DNA from: Chloropicon primus
Taxonomy: Eukaryota; Chlorophyta; Chloropicophyceae; Chloropicales; Chloropicaceae
DNA length: 64,000 nt
Reading direction: 5' to 3'
NCBI GenBank assembly: GCA_023205875.1
Contig: CP060767.1
Location: forward strand, 372,001 to 436,000
Every line of letters starts with the position of its first letter. Positions within the stretch are counted from its first letter, which is position 1. The notes under the pieces are model-generated. The model ran no database searches. It saw only the letters and a program-made list of their open reading frames with translations, and had not been told where the DNA came from. The position numbers and the translations under genes were made by a program. Positions 11,128 through 54,479 of this stretch are shown here, piece by piece.

Positions 11128-12385
11128 CAACGCCCTCGTTTCGACCGCAGACCTCGTGAACGGGGTAACGGACGGCGTGGGATCCGGCATCACTGCGGCG
11201 TACGGGGGCGCCACGGGCCAGGGGGATGGCTCCGTCACCAAGTCCATGGTCACGCACGACGTGACCCTCGGCACGATGACGTTCAACCAGAATGCGAGGC
11301 CCCAGAAGGAGTCGTTGGCAAACGCAAAGATCAACGGCAAGGGTTCGCTCTTCAACGTCGGCGTGACCTCGAACACGATGGACTTCAGCAATGTCACCCT
11401 CGTTCTCACCACCGCAAAGGGTCTGAACTCCAAGACAGAGCTAGAGATCACGTCCGTGGGAAATATCATTCCCAACGACGGGAGGGGTAAGGCGGCCACC
11501 CATGCCATGGTCAACAATGAGAGGGGCCGTGCGCTTGGTTTCGGCGCCCAAAAGAGCAATGAGACCTCCCTGTCTTTGGCGGGGATCATCAAAACGGGGC
11601 CCGGGGACTACTCATTCAACGGCGAGGGTACGTTGAAGACGACGAAGGACGGAACGGAAAGAACGTCTAAGGGGGAGGCGAAGGTCACGGAAAATGAGGT
11701 GGGGCCCGCCGCGGGAATCGGTGGGGCCGCAGCAGCGACCTTCAAGGATTTGAGCTCACCCACAACGGACATGACTCTCGTCGGCATCATTGGCGGGAAC
11801 CTGGGCCTTACCGGAGTCGCACAGGCAAACGGCAAAACCGAAGCGAAAATCAAGGGCAAGAAGCAAACGAGTTTGACGGAGGTGGGAGCCTCCACAGCTT
11901 CGTTAGCACTGCCATACATAGCGGCGGGTGCCACGACTGGGTTTGACAATACTTACGCGGGGTCTGGCGCAGCTACGCTTATCATTGGTGGCGCCAGGTC
12001 CAAGGGATTCGGCCAAAAGAACAAGGGATTGATACTGAACAAGGACAGGGCCAATTCCCGCGCCGGGTTCGGGGGCGTTGGCGTTGCCGGAAACGTTGTG
12101 AAGGGTGGAGAGAGAGATTCTGTCTCTTTTGCAGGCGGAGCTGGATCTGCAACGGGCAGGACCGGACTTGGATCGGAGGGTGGTTTCGGCAGCGGCCTCA
12201 TCGACAGAACCGTTGTCACGGCCGCACTCATCGAGCCCATTCCCAATTTCTCATTCGCAAAAACAGGAAGAGCGGAGTGCACCTCCCCCATACCCTCGCC
12301 CATTTGCGTGAACTACAGAATTGGGAGACGGCTCCTGCTTGACCATGCATCCTCAACGTACGCTTCAAGCTTCGTGGGTATATGA
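10736..12385 (+). CDS. Secreted Gly/Thr/Ser-rich glycoprotein, tandem copy 2 (unknown family)
   Basis: Single exon, 549 aa. Signal peptide and first about 131 residues are identical to copy 1. The rest is a clearly related but diverged chain with sequons NLT, NTT, NVT and NET, the landmarks KSNETSLSLAGIIKTG and ATTGFDNTYAGSGAA, and a different C-terminus with two Cys (ECTSP and ICVNYR) and a short RRLLLDH-type tail. It is unrecognised by family. It is head-to-tail with copy 1 and directly borders the AT-rich island. The pattern of constant N-terminus and variable mature chain resembles multigene surface-protein families, but only two members are visible here and nothing shows switching. Confidence 0.8.
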   Translation: MARGTRMRASSSSSSLSSLLLLLLLLVVLALATTTVHCASPTKDADPTVHDNNQQMQRLRGLLALNLTGTLGFTTSGTGKGYDMDPTMESVNTTQTACTGYYCTNKGLEEPILNQKASTGIVITGGKDASANALVSTADLVNGVTDGVGSGITAAYGGATGQGDGSVTKSMVTHDVTLGTMTFNQNARPQKESLANAKINGKGSLFNVGVTSNTMDFSNVTLVLTTAKGLNSKTELEITSVGNIIPNDGRGKAATHAMVNNERGRALGFGAQKSNETSLSLAGIIKTGPGDYSFNGEGTLKTTKDGTERTSKGEAKVTENEVGPAAGIGGAAAATFKDLSSPTTDMTLVGIIGGNLGLTGVAQANGKTEAKIKGKKQTSLTEVGASTASLALPYIAAGATTGFDNTYAGSGAATLIIGGARSKGFGQKNKGLILNKDRANSRAGFGGVGVAGNVVKGGERDSVSFAGGAGSATGRTGLGSEGGFGSGLIDRTVVTAALIEPIPNFSFAKTGRAECTSPIPSPICVNYRIGRRLLLDHASSTYASSFVGI

Positions 12386-14723
12386 ACACAAACAACCATA
12401 AAAAAAAGTAGTTAGTGCATGTTTTACTGAAGAGATGAAGAATAATCACTTGACAAGTCAATCGAAGAAGGAGAAGTTCGTTCCCTGAATGCCATTAAAG
12501 ATTCATCGACTTCTGTGGAAAGTTGCTTACTCTCTCCGCTGCTCACTCTCTCAACTTGATTATCAATGTAAACAAGTCTTTTCATGCCGTCTCAGAGGAA
12601 AGGGACTTAGGCTATGTGCTCTAATAACTGTTAGCTAAATGATTCGTTCGCGTTCAACACAAATCAAACCATTCAATAGTTCTTTATATATTGCTTAACA
12701 TACACAGGAAACATGCTTAGTCTTAGAGTACTTCCTGTAACATATTGTTTCGCAAGGGTCGTACCCATATTCTTGTGGGAAATGCCATAATTTTGGCTAT
12801 TCTTTCTTTGCTTTCCTTAAATCGTCTATATCGATGCTCGGATTCAACCTGGTTCCCTTCATTCAAGAGGAAAGCGTGGCAAGAATCACAACTTTGGTGA
12901 TTACAGAAAATAGAACACTTGCGTTCCTTGCATCACTGCCATCCTGCTCTCTTGCTCTTCTTGTCCATTATTTTTCACGTGAAATAAACAACAAAAAAAA
13001 AATGAAGCATATATTTATGCTTGCGCACGGTAAACCCGGTTGCATATAATTGTTCATCTTCTACGACGAGGAATTACATCCATATTGTACCATGCAATAT
13101 CTTAATGCCTTTACTATATTTTGCTTCCACTCCTAAAAACCTTACTTCATTTTCAACGCAACATGGAAGTTTTTGGTATAATCGAACAACCTGAAAATGT
13201 ATCCGAAATATATATATATCCGCGCTTCATATTTTGCGCTTGATATAAAACATAAAAACCAATGATATATTTTACCTCAATGTTCGTGAACGGCATTGCG
13301 ATAATGCTCACAGCCATAGGTAGTAGAGAATTAATATTATTCTCGACCTCGAGATAGCATGATATGCATGCTCAAAAATACAAAGGATCAAAACGCCGCA
13401 AGCAACTGTTACAAAATGCTTGAACAAAAAATGTTTGCGATCTTAATAGACTGACTTACGTTCTCTGGAGAGTTATACGCTTGCCTCTGACGACGTCGTC
13501 CAGAAAGACCATGAAATTTCATTGTCAAATTAAACACACGGACAAAGTATTTTGTTGACATTGTTTTTGCAAAAGAAACCGTCTTTCCTTGTAAAAATAT
13601 GTAATGTTTTTGACTAACGAATGATATATAATAACATCCTTTCTCTTTGAGCGTTATAGGTGAAGAATAGCGTTTTGAAAAATATAATATTTGTCGTAGG
13701 ATAAGCATGGGCAATGCGTCGAGAAAATATTCAAAATGAAATATTAAATTGCAAGCCAATTCCGAGGAGCACATTCCCTGCGATTGTCATGGTTGAGTAT
13801 CCAGTAATCTGCTGGCGAACTACTACGATATGGATCTGCTGCAGCATATTCAATACAGAAAAAGGTCTTTAAACAAATATTCCGTGGGGGAAGCACTGAA
13901 GTAGAGGTCCAAGGTTATTAATTTTACAATAAACAATGTAGGCTCCGCTCGTGTTTACTTAGATTGATTGTCAGTGCATCGCGTGGATGCCCAAAGCTTG
14001 TGTTTGATCGACGGATGTTGTGTTTACATCTGTGTAAGTTGGCGTTCCGGAAGTAAATGCGTAACCAGACTCCGATTGTTTTTTTTTGGGGGGGGGAGAT
14101 GGGGGAGTAGACATCTTCCATCGTTTCCTGAGCAGGAATGAGCTTGCTCCTCAAAAGATTTTGCCTTTGAAGAGGCGGACTTCCTTCATTTAGTCATGCA
14201 ACAAGTTTTGGCGATTGGCACCACGGGACGGGAGAGCCGTCATTCATTCATTCCTACAGTCTTCTGCAGTTCAACTCATCCACTATTAACTATATAGTTC
14301 GGGAAAGCGAGCCAAGTTTCAATAAAGTTGTAATCTTGTTGCAAGATCCACGCCTCAATTTGTTCTTGTCTTCTTATTTTATCTCTGGAATGCGATTAGA
14401 AGGGGCGTCTCGTTGGTTGCTTCGAGCAGGAGGATTGCGCGACAAGCTCTTCAATTGTCGTCCTCCCACCTCGTGCTCGTCTCGTCGTTCTCTTTTTTTC
14501 CTCTTTGACTTTAATTCCATTGACAGGCCAATAGAATCACTTTATCCCCTCTTATCCTTTTAGAGACAGAACAGTGCGCCGAGGACGCCCAGCTTGGTAA
14601 GAAGTGACGCCCGCTCCCTTGCCGAGAGAGAGAGTCGACTGCGGATCGATTTGAGCCCCGGAGCATCCAAGGCATCTGAGCTCGCCAACAACAATTGCAA
14701 CCCACTTCGCGCTCGTGAGCAAC
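12386..14723. other. AT-rich gene-free island (about 12.4-14.3 kb) plus upstream of thylakoid gene
   Basis: This is the longest stretch without a gene. Sample 60-base lines near 13141 and 13621 count about 33% and 30% GC, against about 60% or more in neighbouring coding sequence. No open frame has a convincing start, codon bias or domain. I see no terminal inverted repeats, target-site duplication, transposase or reverse-transcriptase motifs, and no tandem satellite. A poly-T/poly-G junction lies near 14080-14098. Composition returns to normal by about 14400. It could be a decayed insertion, a matrix or centromere-like region, or simply unconstrained DNA. Confidence 0.6.
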
Positions 14724-33423: not shown

Positions 33424-33705
33424 ATGGCATGGCGAGGGCTCGGCGTACGAGCGAATGCTCTCGATGCTACGAAAGTGTCGAAGAGCGAGAGAGGCGTTCT
33501 CAAGGAGCGAAGGATGGAAGAAGTCATGCGCTCTGTTCCAGACTTCAACACTTTCATCGACAGGAAGACGTTCACGAGGAAGTTGCCGGAGATCATGCAG
33601 CTCAACATTGGCCTCTACTGCAACCAGGTGAGTGCCCGCTTCACCGAAACGAAACGGCCGACCGAATGTAACGCACGGACCAAAAGAAAGACACACGCAC
33701 GCACG

Positions 33706-33749
<44 letters not shown>

Positions 33750-33790
33750 GAGGGAGGGAGGGAGGGATGAAGGGATAGAAGGACAACGGT

Positions 33791-33827
<37 letters not shown>

Positions 33828-35018
33828 TTAGTTTCGGACTCGTTGCCCAGAGACCAAGAAGTTTCTTGCGGTCACAACTCGACGGAGATCCGAGGCTTCG
33901 TCGTCGTGGCACCTTGCCTTGATGTCCCTCCTCTTGCTGCTGGCGACATCCTTTCGGGGCGACGAGAGTTTGTTTGTTGTGGAGATTTTCTGACCTCCTT
34001 TTCCTTCTTCCTTCTTCCTTCTTGCTTTTGGTGCTTTGGTGCTCTGTGTCTTCTATCGGTTACCCATCGTATAGGCGTGCACTCATTGGTGAGTTGGCTT
34101 CCTTGACCTCTTTCTCTTGGTTTTCCTGTGCATGCATTGACACAGCCTTTGCTTTTGTGGTCCAGTCACGTGAACAGTTCGCCGGCGAGGACGGAGATGA
34201 TGGATAGGGAGACTGCGGAGAGGGTTCTGGCTCTCATTCCTTCTTCTCCATCCATCAAGACGCTGGACCTCACTGGCGGTGCACCTGAGCTCTGCGATTC
34301 GTTTCGGTTCCTCGTTGAAGGTGCCTCTGCTATGGGCTTGACGATACTGGATCGATGCAACTTGACTGTTCTGTCCGAGCCGGGGCAGGAGGACCTCGCA
34401 GACTTTCTCGCCGAACACAAAGTCCAGATCGTCGCTTCTCTGCCCTGCTACTCGGCGGACAATGTTGACGTAGTCCGAGGCAAAGGCGTGTTCGAAAGGA
34501 GCATTGATGGCTTGAAGAAGCTGAATAGCCTCGGTTACGGAGTGGAGGGAACTGGGCTGGAGCTCCACCTCGTGTACAACCCAAATGGCGCCTTCCTCGC
34601 GCCAGAGCAGGGCAAGCTTGAAGTTGCCTACAAAAGCGAGCTCAGCCAATGTTATGGGATCACGTTCAACAGTCTCCTCGCCTTGAACAACATGCCCGTG
34701 AACCGGTACTCGGAGTACCTGAATCGCACGAATGAGCTGGAGAAATACATGAACCTTTTGGTGGACAACTTCAACGAGCAGGCCGTGGACGGTCTGATGT
34801 GTCGGAACCTCTTCAGCGTCGGCTGGGACGGAAGGATATTCGATTGCGACTTTAACCAGCAGCTTGACATGCCGATCAAGGGACAGAAGAAGAGTCAGCT
34901 GACGGTCTTTGATATTGACAGCCTCGAGTCGCTTGCGAAGACGCCGATCAGCGTCGGGCAGCACTGTTTCGGCTGCACTGCTGGCTGCGGCTCGAGCTGT
35001 TCAGGCTCGACGAGCTGA
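33424..35018 (+). CDS. arsS: ArsS-family radical SAM protein, 3 exons including a 14-nt micro-exon
   Basis: Exons 33424-33627, 34075-34088 and 34166-35018, 356 aa. Exon 1 ends ...MQLNIGLYCNQ; the micro-exon encodes ACTH plus two bases of Cys; exon 3 restores Cys and continues HVNSSPARTEMM. Joined, this gives Cys66-x3-Cys70-x2-Cys73, the radical SAM [4Fe-4S] motif in the typical ArsS context. Without the micro-exon two cluster cysteines are missing. Further support: DLTGGAPEL (the GGE-like SAM-binding strand), and the C-terminal DUF3641 region with FSVGWDGRIFDCDFN and a Cys-rich end (CFGCTAGCGSSC). Bacterial ArsS acts in arsenosugar biosynthesis, transferring the deoxyadenosyl moiety of SAM to methylated arsenic. 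The basic N-terminus may target an organelle. Flanking introns are 447 and 77 nt with GTGAGT donors. Confidence 0.92.
33700..33830. repeat. Microsatellites in radical SAM intron 1
   Basis: (CA)n at about 33710-33748, GGGA repeats just after, and (CTG)n at about 33794-33826, all inside the 447-nt intron, the longest in the window. Confidence 0.8.
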
Positions 35019-35121: not shown

Positions 35122-36927
35122 CTACTGCTCAAAAATCGGGGAAGGCAGGGGGCTGGATCCGCCATCCACGCTCCTGGACTGACTCCTCTTGAACCTCTTT
35201 TGATTCTCAAAGTACATGTTCCACTTGGTGATGAACTCGTCCACAATTTCCGGCAGAACCTTCACTGCCTCGCTCGCTTCGGAAGAGTAAGAGATGCTTT
35301 CCAAGGACTCCGCGAGGGTTCTCACGATCTCAGAGTTTGTCTCGATCGACAAGGCCGTCAATGACTTGGTCTCCGAGATCTCGTTCACTACCTGGCCCGG
35401 GTGCAATTTCGCGGTCTGCTGCCTCTGACTTTGGACGGAGTGCCCCGCGCTGATCGAGCGGGCCAATCCCTCGAGCTCTTCCCCCCTCACCTCCTCGCCG
35501 ACGCTCCTCTCGTCCTTGGCCCAGTTCAAAAGGATCTTCGTTGACTTGGGCTTGATCTTGTTCGCGCACGAGTACAAGGACCTCGAAAGCTCGATGTTCT
35601 GGTCCTCCACAGCTTCCATGTGGGCCCACGAAGAGAACAGCTTCGCGGCTTGAGAAGTGGTCGGGCCCGACCAAATGCCCTCCTGAAAGAGCTCCCTCGC
35701 CCTGTCCACATCCTTGTCGAGCAGCCACTCCCCCATGGCCCACCCGTAGTAAGCGTACTGGTTCTTGTCGTCGATGTCGACCGCCTTCTCGAAGAGGTCC
35801 CTCGCCATCTCCATGTCCGCCTCGCACTTCTCCGACGACTTTGTGAACGAGTTGGCGTACCCCTGAGCGATCGCGGCGTCCGAAGGGAACAAGTCGCAGG
35901 CTTCCCTCAAAACCTCTCTCGCTTCCTCGATGTTCCCCCACCTCAGCTCCCACGTGCCGAGGCTCAACCAAGCGAACCTGGATTTCGCCCCTTTGAGGGA
36001 TTTTTGGAAGAGCTCCCTGCTCACCTTCTCGTTGCCCTGCTTCGCCTCCATGATTGCCCAAGCCGTGAGCGCCGGGCCGCAGTCCCTGAAGTTCCCGCTC
36101 GCCACCCCAAGCTTGTACCACTGCCTGGCGGCCTCGACGTCACTCTCGGACTCGGCCAGCCTCGCAAGGGCAACGTAGACGTGGGAGGCGGGCCGCTTGC
36201 CGTGGTCCGCTGCCGCGAGTCCCTTCACCAGCAGCTGCCTCGCCTTGGCCTTGTTCCCCTCCCTCTTCTCCAACATTGCCCAAGAGTGGTACGCCGATAT
36301 CAACGTCTTGTCAGCAGCTATCGCTGCATCAAAGAGCTGCCTCGCTCTCTGCACCCCCTTCCCCCCTCCGCTTCCTCCGTGCTTCCACTCCAGACTCCCC
36401 CAGACCTGCCACACGTGTGCGTTCTCCCCTTTGGTCGCCGCGCACCCGTCCTCGCAGACCTTCTTCGCCATGACAATCTTGTTTTGCCTTTCCAGTACTT
36501 TGGCTAATCCAACATAAGCTTTCCCATTCCTAGGTGACTTGGCAATCACTTGACGGAACAACTCCTCACTCTGCTTGTACAACACCTCCTTCCTGTCCTT
36601 CCTCCTCTCTCTGTCTCCATCTCTCGACTTCTTCCTCGCTCGATACAAACGAAGATCCGTGTCCACCTCAAGCGATGCCGAGGAGGACGAAGCTGATGGC
36701 GAAGAGGATGGCGAAGAGGATGGCGAAGACGAGGACAAGGCCTGCACCACGTACGTGAGGTGTTCGTGTTGTTGTGTCCTCTGTCCTCCTCTATTCCTCG
36801 TCGTCGTCCTCGTCCTCGTCATTGTCGTGAATGAAGGATGAAGGAATGGAGTGGAGATGTTTCGGCTTCTCCTCCACATCCTTCCTCCTCCCTTCACGAA
36901 GACTCTCCTCGCCATGCCGACCGTCAT
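35122..36927 (-). CDS. HAT/TPR-repeat RNA-binding protein, HCF107/Mbb1-like, plastid-targeted
   Basis: Single exon, 601 aa from ATG 36925-36927 (MTVGMARRVF); an in-frame ATG at 37095 would add translated GT- and TTTTCG-repeat UTR and is unlikely. The N-terminal about 90 residues are basic with many Thr, Ser and Arg, like a transit peptide. From about residue 130 a chain of 34-residue half-a-TPR units follows, with W, A and E at fixed places: VWQVWGSLEWKHG, AYHSWAMLEKREGN, ALTAWAIMEAKQGN, AWLSLGTWELRWGN, AYYGWAMGEWLLDK and LFSSWAHMEA. This matches HCF107 of plants and Mbb1 of Chlamydomonas, which stabilise psbB/psbH transcripts in the chloroplast. The RNA target here is inference. It ends in a Ser/Pro-rich tail. 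Confidence 0.75.
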   Translation of the reverse strand: MTVGMARRVFVKGGGRMWRRSRNISTPFLHPSFTTMTRTRTTTRNRGGQRTQQHEHLTYVVQALSSSSPSSSPSSSPSASSSSASLEVDTDLRLYRARKKSRDGDRERRKDRKEVLYKQSEELFRQVIAKSPRNGKAYVGLAKVLERQNKIVMAKKVCEDGCAATKGENAHVWQVWGSLEWKHGGSGGGKGVQRARQLFDAAIAADKTLISAYHSWAMLEKREGNKAKARQLLVKGLAAADHGKRPASHVYVALARLAESESDVEAARQWYKLGVASGNFRDCGPALTAWAIMEAKQGNEKVSRELFQKSLKGAKSRFAWLSLGTWELRWGNIEEAREVLREACDLFPSDAAIAQGYANSFTKSSEKCEADMEMARDLFEKAVDIDDKNQYAYYGWAMGEWLLDKDVDRARELFQEGIWSGPTTSQAAKLFSSWAHMEAVEDQNIELSRSLYSCANKIKPKSTKILLNWAKDERSVGEEVRGEELEGLARSISAGHSVQSQRQQTAKLHPGQVVNEISETKSLTALSIETNSEIVRTLAESLESISYSSEASEAVKVLPEIVDEFITKWNMYFENQKRFKRSQSRSVDGGSSPLPSPIFEQ

Positions 36928-36956
36928 GGTTTCGTGAACAGAACTCGAACAAGGAG

Positions 36957-36992
<36 letters not shown>

Positions 36993-37493
36993 TTTTTTCT
37001 CGGCAACGGAGGAGGAGAAAAAGATTCTCTCTGCGTGTGTGTGTGTGTGTGTGTGTGTGTTCTCTCTTGGGGGTCCTCGCTGGCGCTCTTGCCACAAGAG
37101 GCGCCTCGCCTCGTCGTCGCTCTCTGCTCTCGCTCTCTCCTGGCCCTGAGATTGGCTTCTGATTGGAGATCTCAACATTTCCATTCTACTTCAAATATGA
37201 AATTCGTGTGAAACGAGTTTTATACTATCACTAATTATTATCTAAGTTTGGAAAAGTTCATGGAAAGAGGATGAAGAGCTTTTTCCCCTCGTCCAGCCTC
37301 GAGTTAGGGGTGAGGTCAATGTCAATGCACTGGAGTCCGTGCAACTTCGTCCTGCATCCCCTTTCCATCTTGAGCCTCCCCCTCTCCTCGCCATCACGCT
37401 CTCTCTCTCTCTCTCTCTCACTCTGCAAAAATTCTGTGTGTGTTGTGCAGCATCCGAACAACAAAGGTCAAGCTCTGCCAATCGCATCATCCA
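36928..37493. other. Intergenic with simple repeats
   Basis: Upstream of the HAT-repeat gene. Contains (TTTTCG)n at about 36957-36990, (GT)n at about 37034-37059 and (CT)n near 37400. No gene is seen. Confidence 0.6.
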
Positions 37494-51434: not shown

Positions 51435-53324
51435 TCAGTTCCCGTAGACGCAGAGCTTGCCGTGGATTCCAGTCGCCATCCAAAGTCTGTAGATATAATT
51501 CTCGCCGTTAATGGGGTGAGCATTGCTGACCAGCTTCTTCGGCATGAAGTACTTGCCACCACCGCTAGAGAAACCGTAGAGGTCCACTCGCTCGCACAAC
51601 CCGTTGCGAAGGAGCTCCACGATCGCTCTTACTCTGGAGAAACCACCGGAAGCGTGCTGTATCTTTGACATCCCATTGATGACGAGCTTCTTTTCGGTGT
51701 GCTTGGCCTGCTGAAAGAGGTGGAGCATTCGAGTGGAATCTTTGCGCCAGTCCAGGAGTACTGGCATGCCGTAGATCATCGCCTTCTTTTTGTTCGGCAG
51801 TGACTCCGCGTCAAGCTCCTGCGGCACGTACTTGGGAAAGATGTTGAACCGTGACGGCACGACATCCGGTGCGTACTTGGTGCCGATGTAATTGAGCTTA
51901 TCGAAGAGACCGTCGGTCTTCTTGCCCACGGCATCCCAGTAAGGCTTGGTAATCACGTTGTAACGGATCACAAAGTCGTGCTCGTCGATCTCCCCGCCGT
52001 ACTTTCCCTTCAGCACGTTGTCCCCGTTGCCCACGATCGCACAAGTCCCGAGCCTAAGCTTTTTAAAGTCCTCCAGCTGGTTCTTCCTCCATTCCCAACC
52101 AAGCTTCGATGTCTTGAAGTAGGCATTCTCGTACCAACTCCTCAGCTGGTACTTGTCTTCCATCGATTGGTTGAAGCAGTCGCGGTGCATGATCATGCAA
52201 GGATACTTCTCGGCAGCGATCTGCAAGATCTCTTTGGCCTGTTCCAGGGTAAGGGAAACGATATCTCCGGCTTTGGCTCGCTCCTTGAATTTCTTGGTTC
52301 TCTTCGATGCCGGCGGCTTTGACTTTGGTTGCTTCTGCTTCTTCCGCAGCAGTGATCGCCCCTCCGCCCTTCCTCGAACAAGTTTGGACGCCTCGGCTTC
52401 AGGCTCCTTCGGCTGCACGTGGTTGCCCTTCGGCGACAAGTAACAGTAACGCGGAGGCTTGAGAGAACCGTTAAAGGTGTCGACGATGTGCTGGATCTCC
52501 GGATCAAGGATGATCTTCCTCGGCTTGATCGCTTCCTCGTACGCCTTTCTCTGCAATTCGTACTTTCGCTTCCTCACCGCCTCCGTCACGCTGCTCGGCT
52601 TCGATCGCAAGCCGCGACTCTTCCTCAGCTTGTCCTCCAGCTTTCCCAAAGCGATCTGATCCAGAGCGTGTTGCCTCACGGTCGCGGCCGTGTCCTCCAA
52701 GGCAACCTTCCTCCTCATCTCCTCTATCTGTTGCTCCAGCTTGGCCTCCTCCTTCAATCGAGCTTTCTTCTCCGAAGCGGTTTCGTTCCAACCCGCCCAG
52801 TCAGCGTAGTACCGCACCTCCTCCTCCTTCGGCTTCTTCGTGGGCTGTTCCTTGCCCTGATCACCGGCGGTTGAGGCTTCCTCCTCACCACCATCAGCAG
52901 CAGCAGCAGCAGCAGCGTCGGATGATCCCTGGTCTTCATCCACTGCCTCTTCTTGAGCCCTCTTTTCAGTCACAACAGACCCTACTTCATCTTGCCCATG
53001 GAGCCTCTCCTCAACGTCACGACGCTCCTCCAGACCAACAAGCTGCCCATTCCCATCCACTCTGTCCTCCAGCAAGGATTCTCGAAGGACCACAGCTTTC
53101 TCGGCTTTGACTTCGATGCGGAAGCTTGCCCAATCGCTCATGAGGGTACCCAGCAGAAGTCCAGAGAGGAACAGTATCACTCCTAGGACACCATACTTTC
53201 TCGACTTGGCCTGCCTTTGGACTTGTTCTTGCTGAGAAAGTTTCAGACTTTGCTCTTGAGAGAGCAACCGTCCTGCCATCCCTGACTCATCGTGACGACC
53301 ACAGCCACTCGATCCTGACGCCAT
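51435..53324 (-). CDS. GT29 sialyltransferase-like protein, type II membrane
   Basis: Single exon, 629 aa, ATG 53322-53324. A short cytosolic tail is followed by a signal anchor (YGVLGVILFLSGLLLGTLM) and a long charged stem with coiled-coil and Lys/Glu-rich segments. The catalytic region at the C-terminus shows sialylmotif L (GTCAIVGNGDNVLKGKYGG, then IDEHDFVIRYN) and a motif S-like part (HASGGFSRVRAIVELL, VDLYGFSSGGGKYFM); Cys residues in L and near the C-terminus (KLCVYG) are present. Animal members transfer sialic acid in the Golgi. Green algae generally are not thought to use sialic acid in the animal way, so the true donor may be KDO- or another ulosonate-CMP sugar; that is inference. 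Confidence 0.85.
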   Translation of the reverse strand: MASGSSGCGRHDESGMAGRLLSQEQSLKLSQQEQVQRQAKSRKYGVLGVILFLSGLLLGTLMSDWASFRIEVKAEKAVVLRESLLEDRVDGNGQLVGLEERRDVEERLHGQDEVGSVVTEKRAQEEAVDEDQGSSDAAAAAAADGGEEEASTAGDQGKEQPTKKPKEEEVRYYADWAGWNETASEKKARLKEEAKLEQQIEEMRRKVALEDTAATVRQHALDQIALGKLEDKLRKSRGLRSKPSSVTEAVRKRKYELQRKAYEEAIKPRKIILDPEIQHIVDTFNGSLKPPRYCYLSPKGNHVQPKEPEAEASKLVRGRAEGRSLLRKKQKQPKSKPPASKRTKKFKERAKAGDIVSLTLEQAKEILQIAAEKYPCMIMHRDCFNQSMEDKYQLRSWYENAYFKTSKLGWEWRKNQLEDFKKLRLGTCAIVGNGDNVLKGKYGGEIDEHDFVIRYNVITKPYWDAVGKKTDGLFDKLNYIGTKYAPDVVPSRFNIFPKYVPQELDAESLPNKKKAMIYGMPVLLDWRKDSTRMLHLFQQAKHTEKKLVINGMSKIQHASGGFSRVRAIVELLRNGLCERVDLYGFSSGGGKYFMPKKLVSNAHPINGENYIYRLWMATGIHGKLCVYGN

Positions 53325-54479
53325 TTGCTTTTGTCCCGAGTCCTGTGGTTTGTTACATAGACATGGGGTGGTGGTGGTGCAGAGTTTGAGGAGACCACCA
53401 CGTGTGGTCACCAGCAAAGACGACCGACCGACCGACTTTGTGAATGGAATTAGGAATGAAGAACAAGCTGAGCAACAGCACCACCGAGGATGCTCTCAGC
53501 TTCACCAGAGCTTGACTAGAGCTTGACCAGAGCTTGATCAGAGCTTGATCGTCACCGAGGTTGCTCCGCTTGTGTGACTTGACTTGTCCCGAGGAGAGAG
53601 AAGGGAGGGAGGGAGGGAGGGAGGGAGGGAGGGAGAGTGAGTCACATTGACACCACGTTCCCACGGGAAGGAAAGGGGGGCATTGCCTTAATGAGGAGCG
53701 AGGCGAACTTCTTCGCACAGGCATGAAAATGAAAAAGCAGCAGCGAGGGAGGGAGGGGAGCAAGGGCGCATCTATTACGATACTACGACCCACGAGGAGA
53801 AAGGAAGAGAGAAGAGAGAGAGAGAGAGAGGAAGAGGAATGAATGAGAGGAAAGAAAGTCTTTCCTTTGTGAAGAAAGTTTTCCTCCACAGTCAAGCCAG
53901 CCTCGTTGCAAGGACTTCAGTCCGCGTCGTGTCGTATCGTGGGGTCCAAATAGGAATTACGACGTAGTCGTGAGAGGAGAGGCCCTGTTCGTTGTTCGTC
54001 GTCTCGTCCTTGGAAAAGTTGCTCAAGTTATTCAAAAGCTCTTTTCTCTTTCTCTTTCTCTTTCTCCCTGCGCAGGAAGGAGGCTCAAGGGACAGGCCGT
54101 GTGTTGGAAGGATTCGTTTTTCTTGGTCTTGGTCTGCCGGTTGTCTACCACCGCCGGCCACTATCCTTGAACTTACATCACCTTTAGCGCTGGGATCAAT
54201 CGTCCTGCGCACCCTTTCTTTCGTGCTTCGGTGTCTTTGTCACACGAGAAGCGGTTCCACAACAAGGTTTACGGAATCCTTTCCTTCCATGACTCGTCAC
54301 AAGGGTTGCCTACGTCACCAGTGAAGGGGTATGAAAGGTTTTCGTCCGCTTGAAGAAAACGAGGGGAAGCGGAGCCTTGGGATTGGAGCCTTGGGATTCC
54401 TTTCTGTCGCTCCTATCGGCCATTCGTTCCTTTGGGGCTTTCCTTTGGGGTTTTGTGGTCCAAGAAAGAAAGAGGTAGG
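53325..54479. promoter_or_regulatory. Large divergent intergenic region
   Basis: 1155 bp between the GT29 start and the unknown Ser-rich gene. It holds a fourfold 11-bp repeat (53507-53550), (GGGA)n at about 53606-53632, (GA)n near 53812-53830, and TTTCTC repeats near 54045-54065. A 107-codon minus-strand frame (53892-54212) lacks an ATG. Confidence 0.5.
53507..53550. repeat. Four tandem copies of an 11-bp unit
   Basis: Unit AGAGCTTGAYY: copies end CT, CC, TC and TC. It lies 180-230 bp upstream of the GT29 start codon. Confidence 0.85.

What the first reader, a model, noticed from the sequence alone, without database searches (positions are those of the whole stretch)
33424..34200. 14-nt micro-exon encodes two of three Fe-S cysteines of a radical SAM enzyme
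The CxxxCxxC motif is assembled from three exons: YCNQ at the end of exon 1, ACTH plus two bases in a 14-nt exon at 34075-34088, and the last base of Cys in exon 3. Both neighbouring introns have canonical ends (GTGAGT donors; ATAG and CCAG acceptors). Skipping the micro-exon would delete two cluster ligands and shift the frame, so inclusion works as an on/off switch for the enzyme, either regulated or simply a burden on the splicing machinery.
Basis: partly seen in the sequence, partly recalled or inferred. Interest (0 to 1): 0.78.

Follow-up and report, generated by a model that had tools for sequence, protein, structure and literature searches.

The report
Algal enzyme's hidden 14-base exon
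In a tiny marine green alga, a 14-base exon carries two of the three cysteines that a radical SAM enzyme of arsenic metabolism needs; the public protein record misses that exon, so the enzyme looks dead there when it very likely is not.

Summary
Confirmed at the sequence level. The window lies in the Chloropicon primus RCC138 genome. Exons 33424-33627, 34075-34088 (14 nt) and 34166-35018 join into a 356-aa ArsS (423.6 bits on NCBI's ArsS model, cut-off 300), reading YCNQ-ACTHC-HV across two junctions. The 14 nt is the only short exon found that restores CxxxCxxC. Its splice signals do not depend on the protein: a GTGAGT donor, and an acceptor that is the first AG after the only CTGAC in intron 1. 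CTGAC lies near the 3' end of 15 of 17 reference introns from this genome. The public C. primus protein misses the exon: it joins exon 1 to 34146 and puts PLLLWSS where ACTHC belongs. Of the best 120 homologues listed, 118 span the site, and it alone lacks the three cysteines. The 'on/off switch' has no evidence: skipping would destroy the enzyme, but nothing shows regulation. One correction: skipping shifts the frame with the 34166 acceptor, but 34146 stays in frame and gives a protein lacking two ligands. Most likely this is a constitutive, misannotated coding micro-exon, a known kind in plants and green algae. No transcript was available.

The parts
33424..33627 (+). ArsS exon 1, 68 codons, ends ...GLYCNQ (first cluster Cys, C66)
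   Evidence: open frame, homology of the spliced protein
33628..34074 (+). intron 1, phase 0, 447 nt, GTGAGT...TATAG
33990..33994 (+). CTGAC, predicted branch-point motif of intron 1 (branch A 81 nt from the acceptor), followed by 78 nt without AG up to the AG of TATAG
   Evidence: only CTGAC or TTGAC in intron 1, no AG from 33995 to 34072; CTGAC in the last 100 nt of 15 of 17 reference introns
34075..34088 (+). 14-nt micro-exon GCGTGCACTCATTG, codes A C T H and two bases of the third Cys (C70 and C73)
34089..34165 (+). intron 2, phase 2 inside the Cys73 codon, 77 nt, GTGAGT...CCAG; TTGAC at 34103 and 34137 as possible branch points
34146..34165 (+). 20 nt of intron 2 that the public protein model treats as coding (acceptor ACACAG ending at 34145; gives PLLLWSS together with the start of exon 3)
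   Evidence: P0001 is an exact suffix of this model
34166..35018 (+). ArsS exon 3: rest of the radical SAM domain and the DUF3641 domain with CFGCTAGCGSSCSG

Best explanation
The gene encodes ArsS, a radical SAM enzyme of the arsenosugar pathway. A 14-nt coding micro-exon is spliced in by default, because it carries a full set of ordinary C. primus splice signals: a branch point CTGAC at 33990, an AG-free run to TATAG, and a GTGAGT donor. Inclusion is needed for any active protein, since the micro-exon supplies two of the three [4Fe-4S] ligands. The public protein, which lacks them, is an annotation error of the kind known for very short exons. Shown by sequence: the open frame, the motif, the signals and the mismatch of the public model. 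Inferred: that the exon is included in most transcripts, that the protein is active, and its substrate.
For: Spliced protein: TIGR04167 423.6 bits against cut-off 300, PF04055 42.3 and PF12345 173.8 bits. Public model P0001: TIGR04167 396.7, also over the cut-off, and PF04055 22.1, under the cut-off of 29.5. Of the best 120 homologues listed (of 7999 found), 117 have C...C..CHV; the 3 without are P0001 (the public C. primus protein) and two proteins that begin inside exon 3, P0002 and P0006. Only the 14 nt restores the motif; shuffle control 1 of 20,000, or 0 with GTRAGT. Splice signals: 15 of 17 reference introns have CTGAC in the last 100 nt, branch A at -24 to -76, against a density of 0.091 per 100 nt over the 69 loci of this genome and 0.085 in the window, both strands; ArsS intron 1 has a single CTGAC, and the AG of TATAG is the first after it. 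CTGAC, 15-90 nt without AG, AG, 3-30 nt, GTRAGT occurs once on both strands of the window, at this exon; 20 shuffles gave 0 to 2, mean 0.4. ArsS matches nowhere else in the genome, so no second copy was found that could replace it. Literature: small micro-exons are often missed by annotation, and HISAT2 and STAR without annotation found fewer than OLego (PMC8831610, abstract and section 6 read); the RCC138 annotation mapped reads with HISAT2 (PMC12301720, passages). A 4-bp human micro-exon, also not a multiple of 3, is constitutively included (PMC9929638, abstract).
Against: No transcript was seen. The public model was curated with RNA-seq in hand (PMC12301720 and PMC6731263, passages), so reads joining 33627 to 34146 may exist. 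The branch A of intron 1 lies at -81, just outside the range of the 15 reference introns (-24 to -76), and 447 nt is longer than any of the 17 (100-267). Intron 2 has TTGAC, not CTGAC. In 4 of the 15 reference introns one or two AGs lie between CTGAC and the acceptor, so 'first AG' is not a strict rule. The splice signature was written after seeing this locus, and the shuffles give it 0.4 times per 64 kb. Three close relatives' proteins show no sign of these two intron positions. Nothing here tests enzyme activity.
Confidence: 0.9

Rival explanations
1. The public model is right for a real share of transcripts: exon 1 is joined to 34146, giving an in-frame protein without two cluster cysteines, either as noise or as a dead isoform made beside the active one.
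For: P0001 matches this join exactly; the frame stays open; a TTGAC at 34103 with ACACAG as the next AG would serve as a branch point if the micro-exon is skipped; annotators had RNA-seq.
Against: It is the only one of the 118 listed homologues spanning the site that lacks the motif; that gene finders prefer in-frame joins and rarely place 14-nt exons is general knowledge, in line with PMC8831610; PLLLWSS has no counterpart in the relatives aligned.
Confidence: 0.25
2. Micro-exon inclusion is regulated (by arsenic, iron, SAM or light) and switches the enzyme on and off.
For: The skipped and retained forms translated here are truncated or lack two ligands, so a switch would work if the cell used it.
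Against: GTGAGT donors on both sides; no unusual RNA structure; coding micro-exons in the species of PMC8831610 mostly have PSI over 0.5 (section 6). No direct test was possible.
Confidence: 0.07
3. The locus is a decaying or inactive gene whose motif is met by chance.
For: The public protein lacks the motif.
Against: Frame open over 356 codons with full-length family match; sole copy found; shuffle control; splice signals in place.
Confidence: 0.01

Closest known systems
Small coding micro-exons (15 nt or less) of plants and green algae (PMC8831610; abstract and sections 6, 8, 11 read)
   Same: Tiny internal coding exon inside a conserved protein motif, missed in the public annotation; not a multiple of 3, like about half of those in that paper
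   Different: Sits in a metal-cluster motif of a radical SAM enzyme and carries two of its three ligands; the protein families that section 8 names as most common are others (AP2, invertase, myosin, kinases); lies in a genome with only about 0.5 introns per gene (PMC12301720, passages)
Constitutive 4-bp micro-exon of human MPC1 (PMC9929638, abstract)
   Same: Not a multiple of 3, reported as constitutively included, with strong flanking splice signals
   Different: Different gene, kingdom and length; inclusion was measured there and not here
ArsS of arsenosugar biosynthesis (TIGR04167)
   Same: Full-length match over the curated cut-off, CNQACxHCHV and CFGCTAGxGSSC motifs
   Different: Only the exon structure is unusual
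Exons with distant branch points and AG exclusion zones (PMC1431707, outline and one-sentence abstract only)
   Same: Predicted branch point far upstream followed by an AG-free run to the acceptor
   Different: Predicted here by motif alone; the distance of 81 nt is only slightly beyond this alga's range in 15 reference introns

Membership tests
ArsS (TIGR04167 equivalog) | score over the curated cut-off of 300 bits | tested here: met
   423.6 bits, positions 4-302 of 303
ArsS (TIGR04167 equivalog) | radical SAM CxxxCxxC motif | tested here: met
   C66, C70, C73 in the spliced protein; not met in the public model P0001
ArsS (TIGR04167 equivalog) | C-terminal DUF3641 domain with Cys-rich end | tested here: met
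   PF12345 173.8 bits; CFGCTAGCGSSCSG
ArsS (TIGR04167 equivalog) | makes the deoxyadenosyl arsenical precursor of arsenosugars (function recalled, from no call) | not testable with these tools
   an ArsM-like gene is present at C18:417077-417716; spliced, it scores 164.9 bits on NF008823, below that model's cut-off of 263, and 75.2 on the arsenosugar ArsM model NF038099, cut-off 400
coding micro-exon of 15 nt or less | internal exon of 1-15 nt flanked by introns with GT...AG ends | tested here: met
   14 nt, GTGAGT...TATAG and GTGAGT...CCAG; by sequence only
coding micro-exon of 15 nt or less | reads spanning both junctions | not testable with these tools
   no RNA data held
micro-exon shared among relatives | same two intron positions in close relatives | tested here: inconclusive
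   P0003, P0004 and P0005 read straight through CNQACSHC; P0003 has a 29-aa insert right after CHV that looks like a retained intron; P0006 starts at the MM of exon 3; their DNA is not held
regulated splicing switch | inclusion that changes with condition | not testable with these tools
   no RNA data held

The most novel reading that the evidence does not exclude
The micro-exon is a true decision point. When it is skipped, the spliceosome takes the 34146 acceptor, which stays in frame, so the alga makes two full-length ArsS proteins: one with the [4Fe-4S] cluster site and one without it. The public protein record would then be the second, real isoform.
Probability: 0.06. Interest if true: 0.65.

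Novelty: new member of a known kind. Interest (0 to 1): 0.36.

Why it matters
It corrects the public record of a C. primus enzyme that reads as a radical SAM protein without its cluster site. It also shows that an apparent loss of catalytic residues in a genome annotation can be a missed 14-nt exon. And it gives a simple rule for looking for others in this compact, intron-poor genome: a CTGAC branch point, an AG-free run, a short exon and a GTRAGT donor.

Tried and rejected
Search for short protein pieces (about 62-196 aa) that would show a C. primus transcript over the junction: 1 candidate, P0121, 74% identical over 40% of the query, so not from this alga; uninformative. Search for a second, uninterrupted ArsS copy in the genome: none found. 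I did not study those 81 loci further. RNA structure of 33600-34200: z 0.26, 11 of 20 shuffles fold at least as well; a structure-based switch was dropped. Rfam scan of the window: no match. Phage records: no near match for the gene. Alternative short exons: of 216 open two-intron models, none with a different middle exon restores the motif. A tree of 37 rows (the spliced protein and 36 chosen of the 120) places C. primus with P0003-P0006 (support 100/99); it says nothing on splicing. No paper in the held library has both 'Chloropicon' and 'microexon'; the search for ArsS with arsenosugar and radical SAM gave 1 paper, on actinomycete products, seen as a listing only; the searches for arsenosugar with ArsM (5 papers), for TIGR04167, DUF3641 or the family name (3 papers) and for micro-exons with algae or exon skipping were likewise seen as listings.

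Reference introns: 13 exon pairs from proteasome and Ras matches gave 15 introns (10 picked from the candidate joins printed read by eye from sequence printed, because 2 pairs held a further exon and 1 pair had no good printed join); 2 ArsM introns were read by eye. All 17 were counted. The joins were picked by family sequences known to me, and in most cases other in-frame joins were printed too. Exon pairs also visible in the PF00179 search were not used, as their DNA was not cut out. The CTGAC density printed came from all loci then on file, not this genome alone; one search replaces it.

Full report
WHAT GENOME. The window is C14:372001-436000 of a genome of 17,584,162 bases in 20 contigs. 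That is the size and chromosome number printed for Chloropicon primus RCC138 in Table 1 of PMC12301720 (passages read). The same table gives 0.54 introns per gene and a mean intron of 152 bp, so introns are few.

OBSERVATION. Joining 33424-33627, 34075-34088 and 34166-35018 gives an open frame of 356 codons plus stop with YCNQ|ACTH(C)|HVNSS across the junctions. Intron 1 is 447 nt and intron 2 is 77 nt; both donors are GTGAGT; the acceptors are TATAG and CCAG. Retaining intron 2 gives a 73-aa product. Retaining intron 1 gives a product that stops after a run of leucines, inside intron 1. Joining exon 1 to 34166 gives an 81-aa product with a shifted frame.

IS IT CHANCE? With the exon 1 donor fixed, two-intron models with a middle exon of up to 120 nt were listed: 216 stay open to the stop, of which 2 restore CxxxCxxC, both with this same 14 nt. 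Two in-frame one-intron models exist (first exon base 34146 or 34197); neither restores the motif. In 20,000 dinucleotide shuffles of the 538-nt gap, 90 had any 14-nt AG...GT exon reading xCxxC, 1 had the family-like reading [AS]C[STNAVKR]HC, and 0 had that with a GTRAGT donor.

WHAT THE PROTEIN IS. The spliced protein scores 423.6 bits on TIGR04167, ArsS, with a cut-off of 300, and has PF04055 and PF12345. The nearest solved structures by sequence are the radical SAM proteins YydG and SkfB, E 0.00018 and 0.0016; the YydG match aligns CNASCDHC with CNQACTHC. ArsS matches nowhere else in the genome than at this gene. A candidate partner, an ArsM-like methyltransferase, is split by two introns on C18. 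Spliced, it scores 164.9 bits on the arsenite methyltransferase model, below that model's cut-off of 263, and 75.2 on the arsenosugar ArsM model, cut-off 400, so I call it ArsM-like only.

THE PUBLIC MODEL MISSES THE EXON. The public C. primus protein P0001 (328 aa) reads YCNQPLLLWSSHVNSS. It is an exact suffix of exon 1 joined to 34146 and on to the stop, begun at a later Met. Its listed longest contig is 589,408 bases, which is the length of C14 here, so it appears to be the model made on this same chromosome. Among the best 120 homologues listed (of 7999 found), 117 have C...C..CHV; the 3 without are P0001, and P0002 and P0006, which both start at the MM of exon 3. With the micro-exon the PF04055 score rises from 22.1 (below the cut-off of 29.5) to 42.3, and TIGR04167 from 396.7 to 423.6. 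The PF04055 cut-off is not a sharp line for this family: the intact relative P0004 scores 29.2. Such misses are described as common: in 10 species, including 337 micro-exons of 15 nt or less in Chlamydomonas reinhardtii, 17-78% of them were in the annotation, and HISAT2 and STAR without annotation did worse than OLego (PMC8831610, sections 6, 8 and 11 read). The RCC138 annotation used HISAT2 and BRAKER (PMC12301720, passages).

SPLICE SIGNALS, INDEPENDENT OF THE PROTEIN. I resolved 17 introns of this genome from proteasome, Ras-family and ArsM genes. Of these, 15 have CTGAC within the last 100 nt, with the branch A at -24 to -76. The motif's density is 0.091 per 100 nt over the 69 loci of this genome and 0.085 in the window, both strands, so about 8% of random 100-nt stretches would hold it. 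In 11 of the 15, no AG lies between this CTGAC and the acceptor; in 4 there are one or two. ArsS intron 1 has exactly one CTGAC, at 33990, with branch A at -81, and the first AG after it is the micro-exon acceptor. Intron 2 has TTGAC at 34103 and 34137 instead. The branch A of the second lies 25 nt from CCAG and only 5 nt from ACACAG, which favours CCAG; that AGs very close to a branch point are passed over is recalled knowledge. A scan of both strands of the window for CTGAC, AG-free 15-90 nt, AG, 3-30 nt, GTRAGT finds one place, the micro-exon; 20 shuffled windows gave 0 to 2, mean 0.4. The pattern was written after this locus had been seen, so it is support, not proof.

HOW IT MOST LIKELY WORKS. 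The donors are of the joint commonest type and the first acceptor follows the usual branch-point motif, so the simplest reading is default inclusion. Inclusion is needed for an active enzyme; that follows from the motif. A 4-bp human micro-exon is constitutively included (PMC9929638, abstract), and coding micro-exons in the species of PMC8831610 mostly have PSI over 0.5 (section 6). If the exon is skipped, the choice of acceptor matters: 34166 gives a frameshift, 34146 an in-frame protein with PLLLWSS. The second would be a full-length form without the cluster site. Whether it exists is the one open question with novel content.

RELATIVES. A tree of 37 rows groups C. primus with P0003-P0006 (100/99), inside a larger group of mostly green-algal rows (98/95, fork drawn open; midpoint root for drawing only). 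P0003, P0004 and P0005 run through CNQACSHC without a break. P0003 carries 29 residues right after CHV that look like a retained intron; if so, it lies about 8 nt downstream of the C. primus intron 2 position (my estimate from the protein). P0006 starts at the first Met pair of exon 3, as P0002 does. These are protein records without DNA, some perhaps from transcripts, so they do not show whether the micro-exon is old or specific to C. primus.

VERDICT. Observation confirmed; enzyme identified; interpretation partly supported. Ordinary in kind, unusually placed, and with a concrete correction to a public record.

Noticed in passing
window 34146-34165 and public protein P0001: The public C. primus ArsS protein takes 20 nt of intron 2 as coding and so lacks two of the three cluster cysteines.
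   Followed up: yes
P0003, after CNQACSHCHV: A relative's protein record has a 29-residue, Thr/Pro-rich insert right after the cysteine motif that looks like a retained intron about 8 nt downstream of the C. primus intron 2 position.
   Followed up: partly
L011 1033-2410 (C18:416609 onward): ArsM-like methyltransferase gene in three exons; 164.9 bits on NF008823, below its cut-off of 263.
   Followed up: partly
loci L011 and L019-L060, 17 reference introns: C. primus introns carry a near-constant CTGAC branch-point motif (15 of 17), usable for finding introns without homology.
   Followed up: partly
window 12001-14000: G+C falls to 0.407 against 0.51-0.60 in the other 2-kb blocks.
   Followed up: no
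window 51435-53417 (-): ORF with a glycosyltransferase family 29 (sialyltransferase) match, 55.1 bits.
   Followed up: no
window 35122-37095 (-): Tail-to-tail neighbour of ArsS with HAT/TPR repeats, best match the splicing-factor Syf1/CRNKL1 HAT model (41.1 bits); it may be a general HAT/TPR protein.
   Followed up: no
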